Positions 10,215 through 61,306 of a DNA stretch of 64,000 bases are shown in pieces. Source of the DNA: a virus. Position numbers and translations under genes: made by a program. Below the pieces are notes generated by a model. It was not told the origin of the DNA, made no database searches, and saw only the letters and a program-made list of their open reading frames with translations. Each line of letters opens with the position of its first letter. The first letter of the stretch is position 1. The stretch covers positions 1 through 64,000 of the IMG/VR virus record IMGVR_UViG_3300035665_000004, one strand, 5' to 3'.

Positions 10215-10361
10215 ATGAATATTACTCAAATGTACGAAAGTTTAATCGCTGGTGAAACCACTTTGGATCAGTTTGAAATCTGGATCTGGGAACGTGAAAA
10301 TATGGCTTCATATTACACGTCTTGTGCTTTACATGAACAAACAAATGAATTGGAAGAATAG
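10215..10361 (+). CDS. Small acidic hypothetical protein, 48 aa
   Basis: ATG 10215 with CGGAGAAA site. Acidic and helical (TTLDQFEIWIWERENMASYY). No family recognised; second gene after the promoter at 9869. Confidence 0.55.
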   Translation: MNITQMYESLIAGETTLDQFEIWIWERENMASYYTSCALHEQTNELEE

Positions 10362-10362
10362 C

Positions 10363-10391
10363 TTGATTTTTGTTTTCTGATGTGTTACAAT
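10363..10391 (+). promoter_or_regulatory. Early promoter with TTGATT -35
   Basis: TTGATT (10363-10368), 17 bp, TACAAT (10386-10391), ATAGGAGATCC leader, ATG 10419. Confidence 0.75.
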
Positions 10392-10418
10392 GAATCATAA
10401 TTTAATAGGAGATCCAAA

Positions 10419-10505
10419 ATGAAAAATGTTATTGAGTGGTTACAATTGGTGGTTATTGGTTTAGGTATGGCGGTTGTGTTTGCTGGTTGGTGGTTGGGTT
10501 ATTAA
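10419..10505 (+). CDS. 28-aa single-pass membrane peptide
   Basis: Hydrophobic from residue 7 on (LQLVVIGLGMAVVFAGWWLG). Same length as, but little sequence identity with, the membrane peptides at 8286 and 13607. Support comes from the dedicated promoter and a good AGGAG site. Confidence 0.55.
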   Translation: MKNVIEWLQLVVIGLGMAVVFAGWWLGY

Positions 10506-10551
10506 GAAGAAGCCTCCTAGGCAATCAATCTTAATTCTCGGAGAAATAAAA

Positions 10552-10782
10552 ATGAATAACGAAGAACTACAAGCAAAGTTTGATGTGTTTGAAGATGTGG
10601 TTAGAGAACACAGTAAGCGTGAAACGGTCGGTGAAGGTGAAGTTTGTTATCCCTTTCTTGCGGGTTACCTTCCCTCGTTCTACAGTAGTTTGCTCACAGA
10701 CTTAGAACTAACTAATGAACAGATTAAAAAAGTTAATGCCCGAATTGATTACCACATAGATAAATTAGTACAGATAAATTAA
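10552..10782 (+). CDS. Hypothetical protein, 76 aa
   Basis: Start at ATG 10552 (CGGAGAAA upstream); the longer frame overlaps the peptide gene before it. Mostly helical and acidic, with an aromatic loop CYPFLAGYLPSFYSS in the centre. Family not recognised. Confidence 0.6.
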   Translation: MNNEELQAKFDVFEDVVREHSKRETVGEGEVCYPFLAGYLPSFYSSLLTDLELTNEQIKKVNARIDYHIDKLVQIN

Positions 10783-10804
10783 TTCAATTATTCAAAAAAA
10801 GTTC

Positions 10805-10833
10805 TTGACATTGTATGGTTGATTAGGTATAAT
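10805..10833 (+). promoter_or_regulatory. Early sigma70-type promoter
   Basis: TTGACA (10805-10810), 17 bp, TATAAT (10828-10833), CCATACTTAACAAAACGGAG leader. The spacer plus -10 sequence CATTGTATGGTTGATTAGGTATA recurs at 12877-12899. Confidence 0.88.
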
Positions 10834-10864
10834 TACCCATACTTAACAAAACGGAGAAGTAAAA

Positions 10865-11044
10865 ATGTTTAAATTAGTAATCACATTAATGTTTCACATT
10901 TCAACACCAGCTACAATCAGCACATTTGAGTACGATTCGTTAACAGACTGCTTGAAACACAGAGAAGAAAAAGTTCAAGTTCTTGATAAAATGAATCAAG
11001 AGTCAATCATCATTGGTTACAGTGCTGTTTGTGGTAAAGCGTAA
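10865..11044 (+). CDS. Small possibly exported protein, 59 aa
   Basis: Starts MFKLVITLMFHISTPATIS, a short hydrophobic segment that could be a signal sequence or just a strand; two Cys (near residues 29 and 56) could pair outside the cytoplasm. This layout (short hydrophobic start, then T/C-rich, helix, closing VCGKA) resembles small secreted phage proteins. Function unknown. Confidence 0.55.
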   Translation: MFKLVITLMFHISTPATISTFEYDSLTDCLKHREEKVQVLDKMNQESIIIGYSAVCGKA

Positions 11045-11068
11045 TTTATTGATAAACAGGTGAAGGGA

Positions 11069-11158
11069 ATGGTTGTTAATGAATTAATCGAAAAATTAAA
11101 CCAAACCAAAAATAAAAATTTAGAAGTATTGATGGACCCCTTACAGAATCATAACTAG
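11069..11158 (+). pseudogene. Truncated copy of the 15414 gene
   Basis: The first 20 codons read M-x-VNELIEKLNQ-x2-NK-x-LEV, nearly identical to the intact 51-residue protein at 15414, and then similarity is lost just before a 13-bp tandem repeat in which the stop codon falls. It looks like a remnant left by repeat-associated recombination. Confidence 0.6.
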
Positions 11159-11185
11159 AAATCATAACTAAAAATCATAAGTAGG
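11147..11185 (+). repeat. Three tandem 13-bp repeats
   Basis: Units starting at 11147, 11160 and 11173 of the form AATCATAACTARA, immediately after the truncated gene and running into the terminator hairpin. Confidence 0.75.
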
Positions 11186-11209
11186 AGCATATTAATATGC
11201 TCCTTTTTT
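11184..11209 (+). terminator. Strong rho-independent terminator
   Basis: GGAGCATATTAATATGCTCC (11184-11203) is a perfect palindrome directly followed by six T residues. Confidence 0.9.
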
Positions 11210-11231
11210 AACGACTGAGAGATCATTTACT

Positions 11232-11606
11232 ATGTTACAATTATTCAAAACTCTACTTTCAAAACCATTATCTGCAAGTGAATTGCGAGAAAAAGCAGAA
11301 AAGGTAAAATCTAAAAATATGGTGATTGGTGCTAAAAAATTAATTGATTCAATTGATAACACCCTGATTGAAAGATCTGAACAAGGTGTTAAATCTGGAA
11401 TCATTTCAGTTTATTCGTCGTTTAGTGGTTACATATTACAAGAAGGAAAATTGTGCACCCTAACGTATGTGGCGGCCGATGCTGACATTCTCAAAGTCGT
11501 AACTGCCAAATGTGTCGATGAATATCGTAGTCGGGGTTATGATGTAACCGTTGACCGAGTTGAAAGAGAAGATGGAAAATTTCAAATCATCACTATAGCA
11601 TGGTAA
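11232..11606 (+). CDS. Hypothetical protein, 124 aa
   Basis: N-terminal helical, basic part (ASELREKAEKVKSKN) and a C-terminal alpha/beta part with YRSRGYDVTVDRVE ending in IITIAW. That end matches the LGY/RGY...I-x-W pattern of proteins at 6, 4750 and 19786. No dedicated promoter is obvious after the terminator at 11184; a promoter was not found by eye. Confidence 0.6.
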   Translation: MLQLFKTLLSKPLSASELREKAEKVKSKNMVIGAKKLIDSIDNTLIERSEQGVKSGIISVYSSFSGYILQEGKLCTLTYVAADADILKVVTAKCVDEYRSRGYDVTVDRVEREDGKFQIITIAW

Positions 11607-27042: not shown

Positions 27043-29028
27043 ATGAGTAAATTTTTAGAATTACAATCTTTAGTGTTAGAACATGCAAAAAAATTACAAC
27101 AACACCAATTATTTAGAGTAGAATTACCAGAAGATATTTTTGATATTTATCTAAACTGTTTTGATGATGTGACTGTAAGAAATGAGCATAATTGTAACTG
27201 TTGTAGACAATTTTTAAGAAATTATGGTAATTTAGTTGCAGTTAAAGATGGAAAAGTATTAACATTATGGGATTTTGAAATTGATGGGATTTTTAACAAT
27301 GTTCCACTTGCATTAAAAAAATTGGTACATAGTGGTCAAATTTCATCAGCATTCGTAACTAAATTTAACCGAGTTGGCGTTGAACATAACTTTAGTTCAA
27401 ATACTGAGGGAAAACAACTCAAACATTCCCATTTTTTCTTTGATGTTAAAGGAAAAAATTATGTGAATGATTATGTAGATTCACGAATTGGTGAGTTAAA
27501 CACAACAAAAAATATGTTGCGTCGTGCGTTAGATGAACTAACCTTAGATTCGTTTGAAACGGTTTTGGGTTTAATTGAAACAAATTCATTATATCGAGGA
27601 ACAGAATTCAAAAAAGGAATTAACGATTTCGCAAATATTAAAAGATTATATAATAGTTTAGTTTCTGATAACGAAAAAGACTTGTTTGTTTGTGAACATA
27701 TTGATTTTCAAGCATCGAGAATTAGAAATACGGCAATTGGTACGTTATTGATTGATTTATCAGATGGTCGTGATTTAGAAAGTGCTGTTAACGCTTATGA
27801 ACGTGTAGTCGCACCAAGCAACTATAAAAGACCAACTGCGTTAGTAACACAGAAAATGGTAGATCAAGCTAAAAATAAAGTTCGGGAATTAGGTTTAGAA
27901 GATTCGTTAAAAAGACGATACGCTAAAAATACGGATATTTCCATCAACAATGTTTTATATGTGGATAGAAATAAACCAGGCGAAAGTGATTTATTTGAAT
28001 CTGTTGCAAGTGACATACCAGTCGATGCTAAAAAATTAAAAATCAATAATGAAATCAGTATTGATACCTTTTTAAAAGACATCGTACCGACAGCAAATAG
28101 TGTAGAGTTGTTATTAGAAGACAGATTGAAAAATAATTTTGTAACTTTGATTGCCCCTGCAGTAGATGATGCAAAATCATTATTTGCATGGGACAATAAT
28201 TTCAGTTGGAGTTACGCTGAAGGTATGGCGGATTCAATGAAGCAAAAAGTTAAAAATGCTGGAGGTACAGTTGACGGCGAATTGCGTATATCATTAGAAT
28301 GGTTTAACTTTGATGATTTGGATCTTCACGTAATTGAACCAGATGGGTTTAAAATTCATCACAGCACTAAAAAATCTAAGGTTACTGGTGGACAATTGGA
28401 TGTTGATATGAATATCAGTCCAGAAACACGAAACGCTGTAGAAAATGTTATATATCCAAGCAAAAATAAAATGTTGGATGGGGATTATGTGGTATTGGTC
28501 AAAAATTATACAAAACGAGAAACCGTAGATGTAGGATTTACTATTGAGCTTGAGCATGAAGGTAATGTACGTGTATATGAATCAAACCAATCACCAAATA
28601 ATCAAGCACATTTTGAAGTAGTAAAATTTAATTACTCAAAACAAAATGGAGTAACAATTATTTCAAGTATTTCTGGTGGTGTGGATAACACTAAATCAAA
28701 TACGGTTTATAATATTGGTACTAATAAATTTCATAAGGTTAATACAGTTATGTTATCACCTAATTATTGGACTAATACCAGTGGCAATAAACACTTTTTC
28801 TTCATGCTGGATGGTACAAAAACAGATTCACCACCACGAGGAATATTCAATGAATTTTTAAAACCTGAATTGAATGAACATCGCAAGGTTTTTGAGATGT
28901 TGGGTAACAAAATTGTTGTTCCGGAAAGTGATGAACAGTTGAATGGTATTGGGTTTAGTGAAACTATTCAGAACAACGCGGTTGTTAGAGTTGATGGTAA
29001 ATTATTTAAAATAAATTTTGGAGTTTAA
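27043..29028 (+). CDS. Large conserved phage protein with DUF2135-like domain
   Basis: 661 residues. N-terminal region has a Cys cluster (NEHNCNCCRQFLRNYGN near residue 46) that may bind zinc, then a helical middle. Residues about 405-500 read LRISLEWFNFDDLDLHVIEP, GGQLDVDMNIS and DGDYVVLVKNY, the order of strands in DUF2135/YfaP-type beta-sandwich domains (W-x4-DLDL-x-V-x2-P-G). Close relatives occur in many large phages as a conserved unknown. It forms a two-gene unit with 29031 (2-nt gap). TATAAT at 26978-26983 may be its -10 box. Confidence 0.75.
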   Translation: MSKFLELQSLVLEHAKKLQQHQLFRVELPEDIFDIYLNCFDDVTVRNEHNCNCCRQFLRNYGNLVAVKDGKVLTLWDFEIDGIFNNVPLALKKLVHSGQISSAFVTKFNRVGVEHNFSSNTEGKQLKHSHFFFDVKGKNYVNDYVDSRIGELNTTKNMLRRALDELTLDSFETVLGLIETNSLYRGTEFKKGINDFANIKRLYNSLVSDNEKDLFVCEHIDFQASRIRNTAIGTLLIDLSDGRDLESAVNAYERVVAPSNYKRPTALVTQKMVDQAKNKVRELGLEDSLKRRYAKNTDISINNVLYVDRNKPGESDLFESVASDIPVDAKKLKINNEISIDTFLKDIVPTANSVELLLEDRLKNNFVTLIAPAVDDAKSLFAWDNNFSWSYAEGMADSMKQKVKNAGGTVDGELRISLEWFNFDDLDLHVIEPDGFKIHHSTKKSKVTGGQLDVDMNISPETRNAVENVIYPSKNKMLDGDYVVLVKNYTKRETVDVGFTIELEHEGNVRVYESNQSPNNQAHFEVVKFNYSKQNGVTIISSISGGVDNTKSNTVYNIGTNKFHKVNTVMLSPNYWTNTSGNKHFFFMLDGTKTDSPPRGIFNEFLKPELNEHRKVFEMLGNKIVVPESDEQLNGIGFSETIQNNAVVRVDGKLFKINFGV

Positions 29029-29030
29029 CA

Positions 29031-29429
29031 ATGTTTGAATTAGCGAGTAAAATTAAATTGCGGTTTCAATACAAAGGTATTATTGGTGTTGAAGATTTAT
29101 GGGATTTACAATTAATCGATTTAAATGAGATTGCGAAAAAAGTAAATCGACAGTTAAAAAATTTAGATGATGAGGATTTTATTTCCGGTGATGTTAAAGT
29201 TACCAAAGAAAAAGAAAATCTTCAGTTGCAGTTGGATATTTTGAAACATATAATTGCAATTAAAATTGAGGATCGTGAACTAAAATTAAAAGCTAGAGAA
29301 CGATTAGAAAAAAGAAAACATTTACAGGAACTAATTTATGATAAACAAAATAAAGAATTAAGTGAAAAATCTTTAGATGAATTAGTAAAAATGTTGAATG
29401 AAGTTGACGAAAATTTAATCAACTCATAG
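29031..29429 (+). CDS. Coiled-coil protein paired with the 27043 gene
   Basis: 132 residues; GGAG lies in the end of the preceding gene, so the two are coupled. Starts FELASKIKLRFQYKGIIGVED, then a long charged helix (KLKARERLEKRKHLQELIYD). The same 'LA...LRF-x-(Y/S)-x-G-x-L-x-VEDLW-x-L' opening accompanies the large protein in other phages, suggesting the two act together. Function unknown. Confidence 0.7.
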   Translation: MFELASKIKLRFQYKGIIGVEDLWDLQLIDLNEIAKKVNRQLKNLDDEDFISGDVKVTKEKENLQLQLDILKHIIAIKIEDRELKLKARERLEKRKHLQELIYDKQNKELSEKSLDELVKMLNEVDENLINS

Positions 29430-40380: not shown

Positions 40381-41076
40381 ATGGCTGAAACACCAGATAC
40401 TACAAAAATTCAAAGTAAATACCATTCATTATTTATTGAACAAATTTTAGAATCAAAAAAGAAAAAGAAAGAAAAAAACACTTTTGAAATTAAACCAGCT
40501 CATTCCAAATTTAGAATGTTTATCGATTCATTTGCAGAAGATGAAAAAGGTTTACATGAAATTTTAAACATCTTGTGGGGAGCAAAAAAATATGATACTC
40601 TCGAATTACGAATAAATAGTGGTGGTGGTTTTATTAAAGAAGGGCAACAATTAGCAAATGTTATTCAGAATAAATTTCATAACAGAACAACCACAGTATT
40701 AGATAGTGCAGCATACTCAATGGGTGCGATTACTTTCTGTTTAGGTGACACAAGGGTTGTAACAGAAAACTGTGATTTGATGTTTCATGATTTCTCTATA
40801 GGATTATGTGGAAAAGGACAAGAAATTGAAGCACAAGTTGAGCATAATAAAACCCATTTACGAAATTTCTTTAAAAAAATATTAGTTCCATCAGGCTATT
40901 TAACAGAGTTTGAATTCGAACAAATGATAATTGGTAAAGATTTTTGGATGGATGTTACAGAAATGTGTGAACGAGGTATTGCAACGCACGTTTTGGTTAA
41001 AGGTGAAAACATAAAAGCAAAAAATTACTTAACTCAAATCAAAAATAAAAATGTCAAAACTAAAAAAAGAAAATAA
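40381..41076 (+). CDS. ClpP-like serine protease
   Basis: 231 residues behind GGAGATTTT. ClpP/crotonase fold motifs: LELRINSGGGFIKEGQQLAN (the SPGG-like oxyanion loop), catalytic Ser in LDSAAYSMGAIT near residue 119, and catalytic His in LMFHDFS near residue 139. Basic Lys-rich ends. A second, different ClpP-like protein lies at 59539. T4 itself uses an unrelated prohead protease (gp21), so these may be processing or host-directed enzymes. Confidence 0.8.
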   Translation: MAETPDTTKIQSKYHSLFIEQILESKKKKKEKNTFEIKPAHSKFRMFIDSFAEDEKGLHEILNILWGAKKYDTLELRINSGGGFIKEGQQLANVIQNKFHNRTTTVLDSAAYSMGAITFCLGDTRVVTENCDLMFHDFSIGLCGKGQEIEAQVEHNKTHLRNFFKKILVPSGYLTEFEFEQMIIGKDFWMDVTEMCERGIATHVLVKGENIKAKNYLTQIKNKNVKTKKRK

Positions 41077-41717: not shown

Positions 41718-42029
41718 TCACAGCCAACGTTTTAATTTTTCAATTAACACCGATTTTAAAACCATACCGGTGATAGATTGTTCCATTTCACCTTTTTTAA
41801 AAATTAAAATAGTTGGTACACCTTTAATATTAAATTTTGTTGCTAACTCTTCATGTTCATCTACATCGACATTATAAAACGACACAATATCATCATATTC
41901 AATAGATAACTCCTGTAATATGGGTAATAATATTTTGCACGGTGAACACCAACTTGCGTAAAATTCAACTACAACTACACCTTTAGAAACTGCTTGATCA
42001 AAGTTTGATAAATCAACTGGTTTTATCAT
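41718..42029 (-). CDS. Thioredoxin
   Basis: 103 residues, the standard length. Active site WCSPCK near residue 28-33 and cis-proline loop GVPTILIF near residue 70. Would reduce disulfides or serve ribonucleotide reductase; T4 encodes a thioredoxin-like protein too (nrdC). A late-type box CATAAATA lies at 42053-42060. A second thioredoxin-fold gene without the CxxC is at 62651. Confidence 0.92.
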   Translation of the reverse strand: MIKPVDLSNFDQAVSKGVVVVEFYASWCSPCKILLPILQELSIEYDDIVSFYNVDVDEHEELATKFNIKGVPTILIFKKGEMEQSITGMVLKSVLIEKLKRWL

Positions 42030-42444: not shown

Positions 42445-42861
42445 TCAACTAAGACATTCTTTGACTATTTTTGAAGTGAGTTGAGCATCTAGTGCACTAC
42501 CATAAGTTTCTTTTAATTGTGACATTACTTTACCCATCATTTTTACCGTTTTTTCATCTAAAGTCGAAATGATGGTTTCTACTGCAATTCGAGTTTCACT
42601 TTCTGTCATTACTTTCGGTAAAAAACTTTCACATACTTCAAACACAAAAGGATTAAATGGTGCACCCGAATCTTTAGATTGATGACCCATTTTTAATTCT
42701 TTTTTTGCCGCAGAAACAATGTCACTTTCAGTTACACTTCGATTGCCATCTTCTTTTGCTATCAACTGGACTAATGAAAAAATAGATGTCAATACCTTCG
42801 ATTTTTCAGGATTTTCTTTTTTCATTTTCATTAATTCGGTTCGTAACTCCTCAATATTCAT
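42445..42861 (-). CDS. YqeY/GatB-tail-like protein
   Basis: 138 residues. Ends MGKVMSQLKETYGSALDAQLTS-type pattern (MG-x-VM-x2-L...Y-G-x-A-D...IVKE-x-L), typical of the YqeY domain that also forms the tail of GatB. Middle holds the usual acidic helices (DIVSAAKKELKMGHQSKDSG). Family role in bacteria is linked to tRNA amidotransferase, but YqeY function is unsettled; a role in phage tRNA charging is only a guess. Confidence 0.75.
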   Translation of the reverse strand: MNIEELRTELMKMKKENPEKSKVLTSIFSLVQLIAKEDGNRSVTESDIVSAAKKELKMGHQSKDSGAPFNPFVFEVCESFLPKVMTESETRIAVETIISTLDEKTVKMMGKVMSQLKETYGSALDAQLTSKIVKECLS

Positions 42862-42951
42862 TTTTTACCTCCACATTGTTTAAATATACATTTGGTATTA
42901 TACAAAAAACATTGTATAATAGTATAATGAATTAATTTGGAGGTAAGTAAT

Positions 42952-43752
42952 TTGAGTGAATTAGAGAAACTGATAAATGAATTAACCGAAGAAGATATTG
43001 AATACTTAGAAAAAACAGTATTTACTGAAGATGGAGGTATAATCCCATTAAATGAATTAGATAAATTAATTTCATATGAGGCAATGATGCATTCACAAAA
43101 AGATGCAGTGCAATATGCCTTAAAAATTAATTTAAACTCGGTTTATGGTGTACAAATTATGCCACACTTTAAATTTGCCGATGAATATGGTTCTTTGGGT
43201 GCAAGTACAACACTTAGTGGCAGAATACTATCTAAATTTGGGTTGATTGAAACTATTGAACAATATTTTAACCAAGATAGAGAAATTAGATGGGAATTTC
43301 CACTTTCAAATGATATTACAGTAGCTGCAGATGATATTTCGTTTTTTAAAAATCCAGAAAATCAAATGCTAAGAACAGCAGTTATTTCAGATACAGATAG
43401 TGTCTCTGGTGATTCATTGGTAAAAACTGATAGATTTGGTGACATTTCTCTTACCGATTTAGAAGAAAAAGCTGATAGAATTGAAATTAAGAACAACAAA
43501 GAGTTTTATTTTTTTGATTCTCCACTAAACATAACAAATTATATAGATGGAAACCTGTTGTTTGATACTGTCGAATTTATATACGCTCATAACATAGAAA
43601 AAGATATGTATGAAATAGAATTAGAAGATGGTAAAATTATTCGTTGTACAAGTGATCATAGCATTATGATTTGTAATGATTGTGGTGAACCAATCATCGA
43701 AAAGAAACCAAATGAATTAACATCCGATGATTTTTGTATGATTGAAGATTAA
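42952..43752 (+). CDS. DNA polymerase fragment fused to an intein N-half
   Basis: 266 residues from TTG 42952 (GGAGG 8 nt upstream). Residues about 1-155 are the palm of a family-B (T4 gp43-like) polymerase: K-x3-NS-x-YG in KINLNSVYGVQ (motif B) and ISDTDS (motif C). Right at that Ser an intein starts: SVSGDSLV (block A) and, later, IIRCTSDHSIMI (block B with T-x-x-H). The frame stops about 117 residues into the intein, and a terminator follows, with no C-terminal intein blocks. So the polymerase is fractured: the exonuclease part and the C-half must lie elsewhere and the C-half would join by trans-splicing. Confidence 0.88.
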   Translation: MSELEKLINELTEEDIEYLEKTVFTEDGGIIPLNELDKLISYEAMMHSQKDAVQYALKINLNSVYGVQIMPHFKFADEYGSLGASTTLSGRILSKFGLIETIEQYFNQDREIRWEFPLSNDITVAADDISFFKNPENQMLRTAVISDTDSVSGDSLVKTDRFGDISLTDLEEKADRIEIKNNKEFYFFDSPLNITNYIDGNLLFDTVEFIYAHNIEKDMYEIELEDGKIIRCTSDHSIMICNDCGEPIIEKKPNELTSDDFCMIED

Positions 43753-43757
43753 AAAAA

Positions 43758-43777
43758 GCCTCACTAATCAGTGAGGC
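43758..43777. terminator. Strong bidirectional terminator
   Basis: GCCTCACT/AGTGAGGC perfect hairpin with a 4-nt loop, flanked by A7 and T5 runs, between the polymerase/intein gene and a convergent tail gene. Confidence 0.92.
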
Positions 43778-43798
43778 TTTTTCACATTTACCAAAAAA

Positions 43799-49283: not shown

Positions 49284-50645
49284 ATGAGCCTCAATTCTTC
49301 TATTTTTGAAAAACCGAGTTGTAAATTTAAATTTTTGCAAAGAGAAGGTTTCAATACACCGAACTACTATGAGCTGTTAACATCAGATGATGTTTTGAGA
49401 GTATATCGGGATTATATGATTTCAAAAAGAGACACCCTGAGCTATGATATTGATGGATTGGTTCAAGAAATCGATGATTTTGATGCACAAAAAGAATTGG
49501 GATTTCAACCAAATGGGTTAATCCCAAAATTTGCAACATCAATAAAATTTGATAGTATGGGTGCAGTTACTAAATTAATAGATGTTCGGTGGACTGTAGG
49601 TATGACGGGCAAAATAATCCCTACTGGAATTTTTGAACCTATTGATGTTATGGGTGTTACTATTACCAAAGCATCACTTCACAATTTTGAATTATTGGAT
49701 ACTCTTATAAACAAAGATGGTTTGCGTATCGGTTCAAAAGTTTTAATTTGTAGAAAAGGTGATGTAATTCCTCAGGTTGTATCCGTAATACCTGACAAAG
49801 AAAAAAAACCTTATATCCAAATACCAGCCGAATGTCCCGAATGTGGAGAAACACTAAATAGATTTTCTGTTAATTTAGTTTGTGATAATATTGCTTGTTC
49901 TGCAAAAACAAAAGGCATTTTCACAAATATGTTTAGTACGTTAGATATTAAAGGGTTAAGTGATAAATTTGTTGAAAAAGCCACTGAAGTTTATGACATT
50001 ACAACCATCGATGAATTAATGAATTTAACAGTGGATGAAATTGAAAAATTGCCAGGGTTCGCAAAAAAATCAGCACAGAAGGCATATGATACTATCCACT
50101 CAGTTACGGATGTAACACCAGAACAATTCTTTGCATTATTAAATATACCAAATCAAGGAGTTCGAGTATTCGAAAATTTATTTTCGCAATTCCCAATGGA
50201 AAAATTACTAGATAACTCCTTCAAACCAGAAGATATTTTAGACACTAAAGGTATAGCTGAAAAATCTGCAAACGCTATTCACACTGGAATACAATCAAAC
50301 CTTGATAGATTGCGTGAAAACGCAAAATGGTTCACCATAATTAAAAAAGATGTGGTGACATCACCGGAAAATCACAAAGCCGCGATGATGGGTAAAAGTT
50401 TTTGTATTACTGGAACATTAAACTTAGGGACTAGAAAAGATTATGAAACCTTAATTTTATCTTCGGGTGGTAAAATATCAGCAGTTACAAAAAATTTAGA
50501 TTTCTTAGTTACCAATGATGCTGATACATCATCATCAAAAATGAAAAAAGCGTTAGAAATAAATTCAACCCTACACAATAACGGAGTTGATAAAAAAATC
50601 GTGATAATTGATGAAAATCAATTACGTAATATTTTAGAAATCTAG
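49284..50645 (+). CDS. NAD-dependent DNA ligase, C-terminal part only
   Basis: 453 residues behind AAAGGAAC. Aligns with E. coli LigA from its FLQ-x2-GF block onward: motif IV region YDIDGLVQEID, motif V region ATSIKF, OB fold (VGMTGKIIPTGIFEPI, GDVIPQVVSV), four-Cys zinc finger (CPECGE...CDNIACS), helix-hairpin-helix repeats, and a BRCT domain (GKSFCITGTLNLGTRKDYE). The first half of LigA, with the NAD-binding Ia domain and the catalytic K-x-DG lysine, is missing. Phage T5 also has an NAD ligase split in two genes, so a partner may lie outside this window; alone it cannot ligate. Confidence 0.88.
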   Translation: MSLNSSIFEKPSCKFKFLQREGFNTPNYYELLTSDDVLRVYRDYMISKRDTLSYDIDGLVQEIDDFDAQKELGFQPNGLIPKFATSIKFDSMGAVTKLIDVRWTVGMTGKIIPTGIFEPIDVMGVTITKASLHNFELLDTLINKDGLRIGSKVLICRKGDVIPQVVSVIPDKEKKPYIQIPAECPECGETLNRFSVNLVCDNIACSAKTKGIFTNMFSTLDIKGLSDKFVEKATEVYDITTIDELMNLTVDEIEKLPGFAKKSAQKAYDTIHSVTDVTPEQFFALLNIPNQGVRVFENLFSQFPMEKLLDNSFKPEDILDTKGIAEKSANAIHTGIQSNLDRLRENAKWFTIIKKDVVTSPENHKAAMMGKSFCITGTLNLGTRKDYETLILSSGGKISAVTKNLDFLVTNDADTSSSKMKKALEINSTLHNNGVDKKIVIIDENQLRNILEI

Positions 50646-52464: not shown

Positions 52465-53076
52465 ATGAAATATATCAGTATCGATTTAGAAACTACGGGA
52501 CTAGATGAAAATAACTGTCAAATTATTGAATTTGGTGCGGTTTTAGAAGATACCAATAATATTCTACCAATGGATGAACTGCCGGTGTATCACGCATATG
52601 TTACACACCCAGACGGTAATTTATTTGGCAACGTATTTGCGTTGAATCTCAACGCAGGAATTATTGAAAAACTGAAAAATCAAAAAGAATTACAAGATTT
52701 ACACAACTATGTTCCCATTGAAGATTTAGCATTTAGTTTTATGTTTTGGCTTTATGAACAGGGGTTTCAACTAAACACAAAAAATGAGGGATTAGAAACC
52801 GAATATAAAAGTGTTGAATCTATTACCGTTGCTGGAAAAAATTTTTCAGGATTTGATAAGTTGTTTCTGAATAAGGTTCCAAACTGGAACAAATACATCC
52901 GTATGAGAACCAGAGTTTTAGATCCTGCAATTTTATTCATCGATTGGAAAAATGATAATGCACCACCATCACTCGATGAATGTAAAATTAAAGCCGGAAT
53001 TCAAGGGGTTGTGACTCATCTTGCAGTTGATGATGCGAAAGATGTTATCAAATTATTGAGAACTAAATATGTCTGA
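52465..53076 (+). CDS. DnaQ-type 3'-5' exonuclease
   Basis: 203 residues. ExoI motif SIDLETTGLD at residue 4, ExoII region NFSGFDKLFL near 130, and ExoIII HLAVDDAKDV near 187 (H-x4-D). All four acidic residues of DEDDh exonucleases appear present. Related to phage exonucleases such as T4 DexA, which degrade 3' ends. Overlaps the next gene by 8 nt. Confidence 0.85.
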   Translation: MKYISIDLETTGLDENNCQIIEFGAVLEDTNNILPMDELPVYHAYVTHPDGNLFGNVFALNLNAGIIEKLKNQKELQDLHNYVPIEDLAFSFMFWLYEQGFQLNTKNEGLETEYKSVESITVAGKNFSGFDKLFLNKVPNWNKYIRMRTRVLDPAILFIDWKNDNAPPSLDECKIKAGIQGVVTHLAVDDAKDVIKLLRTKYV

Positions 53077-59228: not shown

Positions 59229-59266
59229 AAACCCAATTAAAATTAAAAACTTTAATTGGGTTTTTT
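59229..59266 (+). terminator. Rho-independent terminator
   Basis: AAACCCAATTAAA (59229-59241) and TTTAATTGGGTTT (59251-59263), followed by T residues. Confidence 0.88.
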
Positions 59267-59538
59267 AAAATATTTTTTTCAAATATAGAAAAGGAATTAT
59301 CTATGACTACTCAAAAAAGAAATTTAAACTACCTTATTCTTTAGGGTGGGGTAGTTCACATTTTCATCCCTTATATTGTATAATTACTTAATAGAAGTTA
59401 GAGAACAGTTGGTATTCATTCCACTATTTTCTCTAGTACGGTAAATACTTTAGATTACTTTTCTTCTTTCTTAGTTATACAACTTAAAACTTTCTTTCAC
59501 CAAATTTCATATTTTTAACGAAAATAACCGAGGCATAA
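59267..59538 (+). other. Leader region with hairpins and a short frame
   Basis: About 270 bases before the ClpP-like gene. A 13-codon frame (ATG 59302, AAGGAATT site) is followed by AACTACC...GGGTAGTT that can form a hairpin around its stop, and by TAGAGAA...TTCTCTA near 59397-59439. TATAAT at about 59379-59384 may be a -10 box. A leader peptide or structured 5' UTR is possible. Confidence 0.35.
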
Positions 59539-60438
59539 ATGAGAAAAAAATTACACAAACATACATCACATGATACCGAATTGATTCCTCAAAATATTTT
59601 TCCAAAACAAAAGAATGTCTACGTTGGTGAGGACCAAGATAGAAATATAGCGATTGTACTAATATATGGTGTTATTGATGAACCCGATGAGTATGTTGAT
59701 GAACTATTAAAATTAAACTGTTTATCATCAAAATATGATGTTGTTGAAGTCACGTTAAATTCACCTGGTGGTAGTTTAAATACAACTGTTGATATGCTTT
59801 CAACAATTAATAAATTTGAGGTTGTTATTACTATTGGTAAAGGTGAGGTTGCATCTGCGGCATTTATGTTATGGGCAAGTGGTGATATTAGAGTAGTTAC
59901 AGATTATTCAATGTACATGGCTCATAGAGAATCGTATGGTATGTATGGAAAAACATCCGAACATAGAGATGCTGCTCAAACATTTGGTAAAGTGTATGAG
60001 GAGCTATTTGAGGAATGTTTTGGTGATTTATTAAATGATAAGGAAAAACTTATTGCTGAAAGATCTGAAACTTGGCTATCTTATAAAGATCTATTAGAAA
60101 GAGATAGAGTTATTAGTTATGATAAATATGTTGTTCCTACAAATCTTTATTCTGTTGTTGAATTGTTTGTTACCGATTCTGGTTCAATATTTATGAAGGA
60201 CCCTGATTCGGATTCATTCAGAAGTGTAACTCTACAATATGGTGACGAAGCTCTCGAAAATATGACCAACTATCTTTATGGTATTGCACCAATAACTAAA
60301 ATGCCAACTGAGGTACCTACAACAAAACCTAAAGCGAATATATCTTCAAGATTGAAAAACAAAAATGTAAAATCTACCGATGATACGACATCGACAAACA
60401 AAAAACCAAAAAATAAAACTGGAGAAAACAATGAGTGA
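59539..60438 (+). CDS. ClpP-like serine protease, second
   Basis: 299 residues, GAGG site. VEVTLNSPGGSLNTTVDMLS is the SPGG oxyanion motif near residue 73, catalytic Ser in GEVASAAFMLWASGD near 108, and catalytic His in MYMAHRESYG near 134. The last 50 residues are a Lys/Thr/Pro-rich tail. Longer than and only distantly similar to the ClpP-like protein at 40381. Overlaps the GTP cyclohydrolase gene by 8 nt. Confidence 0.8.
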   Translation: MRKKLHKHTSHDTELIPQNIFPKQKNVYVGEDQDRNIAIVLIYGVIDEPDEYVDELLKLNCLSSKYDVVEVTLNSPGGSLNTTVDMLSTINKFEVVITIGKGEVASAAFMLWASGDIRVVTDYSMYMAHRESYGMYGKTSEHRDAAQTFGKVYEELFEECFGDLLNDKEKLIAERSETWLSYKDLLERDRVISYDKYVVPTNLYSVVELFVTDSGSIFMKDPDSDSFRSVTLQYGDEALENMTNYLYGIAPITKMPTEVPTTKPKANISSRLKNKNVKSTDDTTSTNKKPKNKTGENNE

Positions 60439-61306
60439 TTTATCTGAATTAGAAATCGAAAGAGCATTAGAAATAGCAAATATACACAAAGAGGGTAATA
60501 ATATTACTCTGACTGATATTGACCATTATATAAAAAATGCTATAAGTGTTGAATTTAAATCTAAATTCCCAAATGACAATTTTGATGTATCGTGGCATAC
60601 CTACAAAGCTATTGGTTGTTTCCCAGCATTGGGAAATGCCTATGATATTGGTATTTCAATTGATAAACCAACTCATTATCTAATGCGATTAGTTGCTACC
60701 TGGCATATTGAAAAAGCATTGAAAGCATTAAAATTTGACACCGATAACGATCCAAATTTATTAAGTGAACCGGAATTTGCAAACATTGGTACTGCAGGTA
60801 GAATTGCGAAAATTTGGGCTGGTAGTAGTTTAGATCCAGAAAATATTAGAGAATATGGTGATGGTAGATGGGTAAAACCACCAAGATTAGCAACTTTCCC
60901 TGCAAAAGATGCAGATCGTGGAAGACCAGTTACAGTAGTTATTAATAATCCAGGTATTGGTAGTGTATGTTCACATCACTTTTTACCATACAGCATACAA
61001 AATTCTGAGAACAGCAAAATTGTTATTTCTTATATTCCCAACAAAAAATTATTGGGATTATCAAAAATTGGTAGATTTGTAGAATGGTGTTTAAATAGAC
61101 CTTCTTTACAAGAAGAAGCGACTGAATTAATCTTTAAAAAAATTAAAGAAATTGCCGAAACAGATGATGTTTATGTTGGGTTGATTGAGTTAGAGCATAG
61201 CTGTGAGACCACACGAGGTAGCAAACAACATAGCACAACCACTACTGAGGATTATAGTGGTGCGTATAATGATATTACATATCGAAATTCGATTCTTAAA
61301 TACTAG
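60431..61306 (+). CDS. folE: GTP cyclohydrolase I
   Basis: 291 residues from ATG 60431 (GGAG 6 nt upstream). C-terminal 110 residues match FolE: SVCSHHFLPYS (zinc Cys and His plus catalytic His), LLGLSKIGRFVEWCLNRPSL (GLSKI-x-R substrate block), and LEHSCETTRGSKQHSTTTT with the third zinc ligand Cys. The N-terminal 160 residues are longer than in FolE and are shared by phage versions. Converts GTP to 7,8-dihydroneopterin triphosphate, first step for folate, pterins, and 7-deazaguanine; the QueD-like protein at 22926 could follow. Confidence 0.88.
   Translation: MSDLSELEIERALEIANIHKEGNNITLTDIDHYIKNAISVEFKSKFPNDNFDVSWHTYKAIGCFPALGNAYDIGISIDKPTHYLMRLVATWHIEKALKALKFDTDNDPNLLSEPEFANIGTAGRIAKIWAGSSLDPENIREYGDGRWVKPPRLATFPAKDADRGRPVTVVINNPGIGSVCSHHFLPYSIQNSENSKIVISYIPNKKLLGLSKIGRFVEWCLNRPSLQEEATELIFKKIKEIAETDDVYVGLIELEHSCETTRGSKQHSTTTTEDYSGAYNDITYRNSILKY

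What the first reader, a model, noticed from the sequence alone, without database searches (positions are those of the whole stretch)
42952..43752. Fractured replicative DNA polymerase carrying the N-half of a split intein
The frame holds only the palm segment of a family-B polymerase (KINLNSVYG, then ISDTDS). At the motif-C Ser it switches into an intein (SVSGDSLV block A; TSDHS block B) and stops after about 117 intein residues, at once followed by a strong terminator. Intein insertion at DTDS and split inteins in phage replication genes are established. Here the polymerase would need a separate N-terminal piece (exonuclease domain) and a C-terminal piece with an intein-C. Neither is in this window, so at least three genes would build one enzyme.
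Basis: partly seen in the sequence, partly recalled or inferred. Interest (0 to 1): 0.9.

Follow-up and report, generated by a model that had tools for sequence, protein, structure and literature searches.

The report
Phage polymerase split across distant genes
A large phage stores its DNA-copying enzyme in pieces: the gene seen here ends in half of a self-splicing protein tag (an intein), its matching half sits 27,000 bases away in the same genome, and the pieces are probably stitched together only after both proteins are made.

Summary
The window gene (42952-43752, +) is the fingers/palm part of a T4 gp43-type family-B polymerase (motif B KINLNSVYG, motif C ISDTD). It runs into a 117-residue intein-N and ends at a strong hairpin. 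The C-half lies in the same virus record, just outside the window, at 70900-72045 (+): a 40-residue intein-C ending ...NNILVHN|S, fused to the gp43 palm-thumb region. All core class-1 splicing residues are present and splicing would restore ISDTD^SCYF. Two relatives (290 and 172 kb contigs) carry both halves, 20 kb apart, under strong purifying selection (dN/dS 0.00-0.28), so this is not a remnant. The exonuclease/motif-A piece is in none of the three incomplete contigs; diverse phages encode it as a separate gene, sometimes tens of kb away, so a three-gene enzyme is likely but unproven. Split-intein and three-gene PolB are already known (Aes508/Aes123, PTm1, PA5oct/MIJ3). What is unusual is that the intein halves are unlinked: in 57 other split loci the gap is 7.8 kb or less (median 0.96 kb). 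The same lineage also splits topoisomerase II into intein halves 116 kb apart on opposite strands. Trans-splicing itself is inferred.

The parts
42952..43752 (+). polB middle piece plus intein-N (N-half precursor, 266 aa). Its partner is OUTSIDE the window in the same record: C-half precursor at record position 70900-72045 (+), intein-C 70900-71019 and C-extein 71020-72045 (locus L004:7900-9045)
   Evidence: ORF with SD; Pfam/PHROG; ortholog 63% identical in a 290-kb relative. Partner:
42952..43398 (+). N-extein: fingers/palm segment with motif B KINLNSVYG and motif C ISDTD (149 aa)
   Evidence: dN/dS 0.15 vs G001, 0.04 G001 vs G002
43399..43749 (+). intein-N, 117 aa: Ser1, block A SVSGDSLV, block B TSDHS
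   Evidence: Pfam PF14890; AF2/Foldseek to inteins incl. 9HTH
42937..42951 (+). ribosome-binding site region (GGAGG) before the TTG start at 42952
   Evidence: sequence
42892..42928 (+). promoter-like boxes (TTGTATAATAGTATAAT) that would give the N-half its own transcription unit; the palindrome also supplies a -10-like box to the divergent gene at 42445-42861
   Evidence: consensus match only
43753..43782 (.). 13-bp hairpin AAAAAGCCTCACT-aatc-AGTGAGGCTTTTT, terminator-like, between convergent genes
   Evidence: -18.2 kcal/mol, z -9

Best explanation
The gene encodes the middle part of the phage's T4 gp43-type replicative DNA polymerase fused to the N-half of a split class-1 intein inserted at motif C (ISDTD|S). 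The C-half precursor (intein-C plus the rest of palm and the thumb) is encoded 27 kb away on the same strand, behind its own promoter-like sequence. After separate translation the intein halves associate and trans-splice, giving a continuous palm-thumb polypeptide with an intact motif C (ISDTD^SCYF). By analogy with other phages, that product then pairs non-covalently with a third gene product carrying the exonuclease domain and motif A, expected in the unassembled part of the genome. Shown: both halves, all core catalytic residues, conservation, purifying selection, separation. Inferred: the splicing reaction, the third gene, and non-covalent pairing.
For: N-half. C-half in the same record. 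Intein catalytic residues Ser1, T-x-x-H, penultimate His, Asn and +1 Ser present in G000, G001, G002, PTm1, PAC2, F379 and VPALA. Both halves conserved and about 20 kb apart in two relatives, with the intervening genes largely collinear with those in this record. dN/dS: N-extein 0.04-0.15, intein-N 0.11-0.28, intein-C 0.00-0.28, C-extein 0.04-0.12. Three-gene precedents: PTm1 ORF-236/239/241, Aes508 gp43A/43B-1/43B-2, and several IMG/VR loci. Separate N-pieces 14-90 kb away from M/C in other phages. The related Aes123 PolB1 intein trans-splices in vitro (PMC11923092). Split 43A/43B of phage 25 co-purify and have polymerase activity (PMC2988022).
Against: No exonuclease/motif-A gene in G000 (122 kb), G001 (290 kb) or G002 (172 kb) by PF03104, phrog_262, or an HMM built from 58 N-terminal regions (in G000 and G001 also searched in segments). 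Without motif A there is no active polymerase. No transcript or protein data. Motif C is slightly unusual (IS-DTD rather than YG/YI-DTD).
Confidence: 0.85

Rival explanations
1. Dead remnant: the fragment is a decaying piece of an old polymerase, replaced by another enzyme.
For: No exonuclease/motif-A piece found in any of three contigs.
Against: Intact partner in the same record; both halves intact in three contigs; dN/dS 0.00-0.28, also in the intein parts. No other PolB in the record.
Confidence: 0.04
2. The halves assemble without splicing: intein pieces act only as a docking module, and the polymerase works as a non-covalent complex of precursors.
For: Phage 25 gp43A/43B and Aeh1 NrdA work as non-covalent pieces (PMC2988022); the ligase of this lineage is fractured with no intein seen.
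Against: Every core catalytic residue of the intein is kept in three phages although splicing is the known reason to keep them; a homologous intein is active (PMC11923092); unspliced intein would sit in motif C of the active site.
Confidence: 0.07
3. The polymerase is two-part only: the N-terminal exonuclease function is replaced by the separate DnaQ-like exonuclease (window 52465-53076), and motif A comes from an unrecognised diverged protein.
For: A conserved 203-aa DnaQ-like exonuclease lies in the same cluster (PF00929 E 5.5e-7; ortholog); a four-piece polymerase with its palm piece 38 kb from the rest exists in another contig.
Against: T4-type phages often have a separate DexA/DnaQ exonuclease as well (own knowledge); no conserved motif-A protein found. 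The motif-A-like ORF h239355 of G001 belongs to a small paralogous protein group, so its match is probably chance.
Confidence: 0.06
4. Assembly artefact: the 27-kb separation comes from a mis-joined contig.
For: All are metagenome assemblies.
Against: Three separate records, one only 63-75% identical to the others in these genes, show the same unlinked arrangement with largely collinear genes between the halves.
Confidence: 0.02

Closest known systems
Aeromonas phage Aes508/Aes123 PolB1 split intein (gp43A, gp43B-1, gp43B-2)
   Same: T4-type PolB in three genes; split intein at motif C DTD|S; Ser1, TxxH, HN|S; about 120 + 40 residues
   Different: Halves about 1 kb apart with a VSR-like endonuclease gene between them, and a group I intron in the N-half; only about 24% identical over the C-half
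Tenacibaculum phage PTm1 split polymerase (ORF-236/239/241)
   Same: Three genes, similar split points, same intein site and lengths 118 + 43
   Different: Genes clustered within about 6 kb with a VSR endonuclease gene between the halves; about 22-23% identical
Pseudomonas phages PA5oct/MIJ3/PAC2 split PolB intein (PMC6892783)
   Same: Same insertion site, block residues and class
   Different: N-half contains the whole N-terminal domain (two genes, not three); halves flank a homing endonuclease gene 1.7 kb long
Cyanobacterial DnaE split inteins (Ssp/Npu; own knowledge)
   Same: Replicative polymerase whose intein halves are encoded at distant loci and trans-spliced
   Different: Different polymerase family (DnaE type), a cellular chromosome, Cys1 chemistry; not homologous in extein
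Fractured genes of Dassa et al. 2009 (cited in PMC6892783 and PMC10448857; original not readable here)
   Same: Essential phage genes broken by split inteins
   Different: The defining homing-endonuclease gene between adjacent halves (as I recall that paper) is absent here; 20-27 kb of other genes lie between them

Membership tests
T4 gp43-type family-B DNA polymerase | Motif B KxxxNSxYG | tested here: met
   KINLNSVYG, invariant K, N, Y, G in 38-sequence alignment A7
T4 gp43-type family-B DNA polymerase | Motif C DTD(S) | tested here: met
   ISDTD, completed by SCYF after splicing
T4 gp43-type family-B DNA polymerase | Palm-thumb C-terminal domain | tested here: met
   phrog_262 E 3.5e-32; Foldseek RB69 gp43 E 2e-10, model pLDDT 85
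T4 gp43-type family-B DNA polymerase | 3'-5' exonuclease domain and motif A DxxSLYP | tested here: inconclusive
   Not in G000, G001 or G002; all three records are incomplete
Class-1 intein | Nucleophilic residue 1 (Cys/Ser) and block A | tested here: met
   Ser1, SVSGDSLV; Ser1 conserved in both relatives
Class-1 intein | Block B TxxH | tested here: met
   TSDH / TEDH
Class-1 intein | Blocks F and G ending His-Asn followed by Ser/Thr/Cys | tested here: met
   KVYDVVMKSNPHTFFANNILVHN|S
Split intein (trans-splicing) | N- and C-parts encoded by separate genes with matching insertion point | tested here: met
   Record positions 43399-43749 and 70900-71019; PF14890 hit on each
Split intein (trans-splicing) | Protein trans-splicing activity | not testable with these tools
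   No experiment possible; homologous Aes123 PolB1 is active (PMC11923092)
Fractured gene with split intein and intervening homing endonuclease | Endonuclease gene between the two halves, halves adjacent | tested here: not met
   27,148 bp of DNA with other genes between the halves (20.2 kb in relatives). The GIY-YIG gene at 69766-70809 (-), just upstream of the C-half, is 26 kb from the N-half and is not at that place in G001
Three-gene PolB (gp43A/43B-1/43B-2 format) | Middle piece begins between motif A and motif B | tested here: met
   57 residues before the motif-B Lys, against 21-63 in ten other stand-alone middle pieces
Three-gene PolB (gp43A/43B-1/43B-2 format) | A separate gene for exonuclease and motif A | tested here: inconclusive
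   Not found in three incomplete records

The most novel reading that the evidence does not exclude
In this huge-phage lineage unlinked split inteins are a fixed genome organisation, not an accident. At least two essential replication enzymes (PolB, 20-27 kb; topoisomerase II large subunit, 116 kb and opposite strand) exist only as intein halves encoded at distant loci and independently transcribed, so each enzyme is active only when both loci are expressed.
Probability: 0.5. Interest if true: 0.7.

Novelty: new variant of a known kind. Interest (0 to 1): 0.55.

Why it matters
The phage split inteins examined here nearly always have their halves side by side, often around a homing endonuclease gene, which fits the view that they are traces of gene invasion. 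In this lineage the halves have drifted 20-27 kb apart, no endonuclease is left between adjacent halves, and selection still holds both halves, including the intein. It shows a possible later stage of such invasions: the split intein becomes the only thing holding an essential enzyme together, so its gene can be scattered over the genome. It makes a testable prediction (a spliced ISDTD-SCYF junction in infected cells) and offers small Ser1 split inteins of about 157 residues.

Tried and rejected
1) Exonuclease/motif-A gene in G000, G001, G002: PF03104, phrog_262, HMMs from 11 and 58 N-terminal regions, 180-column segment HMMs (G000, G001), motif-A regex, blastp; nothing credible. Weak motif-A and motif-B-like hits in G001 ORFs h239355 and h237666 were rejected: both belong to a set of small ORFs with shared C-termini. 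2) A shared operator: an exact palindrome TTATACAA-N-TTGTATAA occurs in G000 only upstream of the two halves. But the relatives lack an exact copy, and both G000 sites sit between divergent genes, so back-to-back -10 boxes explain it. 3) A genome-wide habit of missing N-termini (SbcC, helicase) was suggested by PHROG coordinates but rejected on reading the proteins, which start normally; only the ligase is truly fractured. 4) Close relatives by single-protein scan found none; alignment scans found them. 6) An 'N-half without partner' reading was abandoned.

Full report
Observation. The window is bases 1-64000 of a 121,946-bp linear virus record, called G000 below. The gene at 42952-43752 (+) has a TTG start behind GGAGG, encodes 266 aa, and ends at a strong hairpin (-18.2 kcal/mol, z -9). 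It holds family-B motif B (KINLNSVYG) and motif C (ISDTD). From the motif-C serine it reads into an intein N-part of 117 residues with block A SVSGDSLV and block B TSDHS. Pfam, PHROG, PDB-sequence and tblastn searches agree. AlphaFold places the intein part with confidence near 90, and Foldseek returns inteins, among them the crystallised Aes123 PolB1 split intein.

The partner. Searching the rest of the record with PTm1 and PAC2 polymerase pieces gave the C-half at 70900-72045 (+). It begins MLKKVKVKSVKKIDYSGKVYDVVMKSNPHTFFANNILVHN|SCYF. The first 40 residues match the C-end of the Pfam intein model (positions 119-155). The rest is gp43 palm-thumb: phrog_262 E 3.5e-32; Foldseek to RB69 gp43 E 2e-10. 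The halves are 27,148 bp apart on the same strand. All residues needed for a class-1 splicing pathway are present: Ser1, T-x-x-H, penultimate His, Asn, and Ser +1. The product would read TAVISDTD^SCYFRVME.

Relatives and selection. An alignment scan of IMG/VR found a 289,880-bp contig (G001) whose C-half is 75% identical and N-half 63% identical, and a 172,404-bp contig (G002) 93-98% identical to G001 in these two genes. Both halves are intact in both, 20.2 kb apart, and the genes between are largely collinear with those in this record, which makes misassembly unlikely. dN/dS between G000 and G001 is 0.15 (N-extein), 0.28 (intein-N), 0.28 (intein-C) and 0.12 (C-extein). Between G001 and G002 it is 0.04, 0.11, 0.00 and 0.04. 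Synonymous distances between G000 and G001 are near saturation, so those ratios are rough, but the direction is clear: both halves, inteins included, are under purifying selection. A remnant would not look like this.

How unusual is the arrangement? Of 80 IMG/VR loci recovered with a C-half profile, 57 had the intein-N half in a separate ORF. The gap between halves has a median of 957 bp and a maximum of 7.8 kb. The only locus with full upstream flank and no N-half match within 10 kb was this lineage. In isolates (PTm1, Aes508, PAC2, KP13-7, F379, VPALA) the halves are also neighbours. An endonuclease gene between the halves is annotated for PTm1, Aes508 (a VSR-like domain) and PAC2; for the other three only ORFs of unassigned function were seen.

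The third piece. The middle piece starts 57 residues before motif B. Stand-alone middle pieces of other phages start 21-63 residues before it, and their N-terminal genes end 90-193 residues after motif A. The gene boundary therefore matches an established three-gene format (gp43A/43B-1/43B-2 of Aes508; ORF-236/239/241 of PTm1). The N-terminal gene itself was not found in G000, G001 or G002. All three records appear incomplete: G002 runs about 15.7 kb beyond the left end of G001 with genes not found in G001, and IMG/VR classes such linear records as often fragments. In other large phages the N-terminal gene lies far from the rest: 90 kb and opposite strand in a 352-kb record, 33 kb in a 246-kb record, about 20 kb in a 181-kb record. 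One 227-kb record has a four-piece polymerase whose palm piece is 38 kb away. Absence from these contigs is therefore weak evidence.

A wider pattern. The same lineage breaks other replication genes. Topoisomerase II large subunit: the N-half (ATPase and gyraseB domains...AFSEGD|CVKSDTLI..., block B SENHKHP) is at 113870-115507 (-) in this record and 176790-178421 (+) in G001. The C-half (...ENGLLTHN|SAIASFTEIRD, then TOPRIM) is at 59244-60476 (-) in G001, 116 kb away and on the opposite strand; it is not in this record. NAD ligase: the adenylation domain is broken with no intein seen; the C-part is at 49284-50645 here, and the N-part is 175 kb away from the C-part in G001. G001 also has a TerL split-intein pair with an endonuclease-like gene between, and one more intein-C ORF.

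Mechanism. Shown by sequence: both halves, matching insertion point, complete catalytic set, conservation, physical separation, and a promoter-like box before each (consensus matches only). Inferred: translation of two precursors, association, trans-splicing, then non-covalent pairing with a gp43A-like protein. The inference rests on relatives: Aes123 PolB1 trans-splices in vitro (PMC11923092), and phage 25 43A and 43B co-purify with polymerase activity (PMC2988022).

Known or new. Split-intein PolB is known (MIJ3: PMC6892783; PTm1 and Aes508 annotations). The new element is unlinked halves, conserved in the lineage, for at least two enzymes. I found no description of that in the papers I could search, but most subscription papers are not held, and Dassa et al. 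2009 could not be opened. I class it as a new variant of a known kind.

Noticed in passing
G000 113870-115507 (-) (outside window); G001 176790-178421 (+) and 59244-60476 (-): Topoisomerase II large subunit encoded as a split-intein pair whose halves are 116 kb apart on opposite strands in G001 (AFSEGD|C... and ...LLTHN|SAIASF, TOPRIM).
   Followed up: partly
window 49284-50645 (+); G001 10239-11600 and 186057-186632: NAD-dependent DNA ligase broken inside the adenylation domain into two genes 175 kb apart in G001, with no intein seen at the break; the N-part is not in this record.
   Followed up: partly
G000 69766-70809 (-) (outside window, L004:6766-7809): GIY-YIG (Seg-like) homing endonuclease gene divergent from and directly upstream of the polymerase C-half; not at that place in G001.
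   Followed up: partly
G004 (locus L058, IMGVR_UViG_3300037010_003311): L139 and L140: A four-gene family-B polymerase: exonuclease piece, palm piece with motif A 38 kb away, a 152-aa motif C + intein-N piece with about 30 extein residues, and an intein-C + thumb piece.
   Followed up: partly
G001 275194-280170: Terminase large subunit split by an intein with a short N-part (about 33 aa, Cys1) and long C-part; a 711-aa homing-endonuclease-like ORF lies between.
   Followed up: partly
G001 236-283 kb: About 30 otherwise different proteins, mostly in tandem, share a C-terminal motif like LPxEVKDIFIF; a second set ends in YPELWI/HPEWLI. This looks like a C-terminal tag of unknown purpose.
   Followed up: no
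G001 28322-29125 (L022:12799-13602) and 27158-28159: A phage-encoded flagellin (Pfam Flagellin_N E 1e-35) next to a DnaJ gene.
   Followed up: partly
G000 72155-74647 and 76118-77401 (outside window): ORFs that read like a PAS/histidine kinase/receiver hybrid sensor kinase and a second kinase-like protein, just downstream of the polymerase C-half; not checked with profiles.
   Followed up: no
window 40381-41076 and 59539-60438: Two ClpP-like proteases in one phage genome, with a ClpA-like ATPase at 118030-120339 of the record.
   Followed up: no
window 52465-53076: Separate DnaQ-like exonuclease conserved in the relatives; could supply proofreading if the PolB exonuclease domain is truly missing.
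   Followed up: partly
window 41718-42029 (-): Small ORF with a thioredoxin-like WCSPC motif near the polymerase N-half; not checked with profiles.
   Followed up: no
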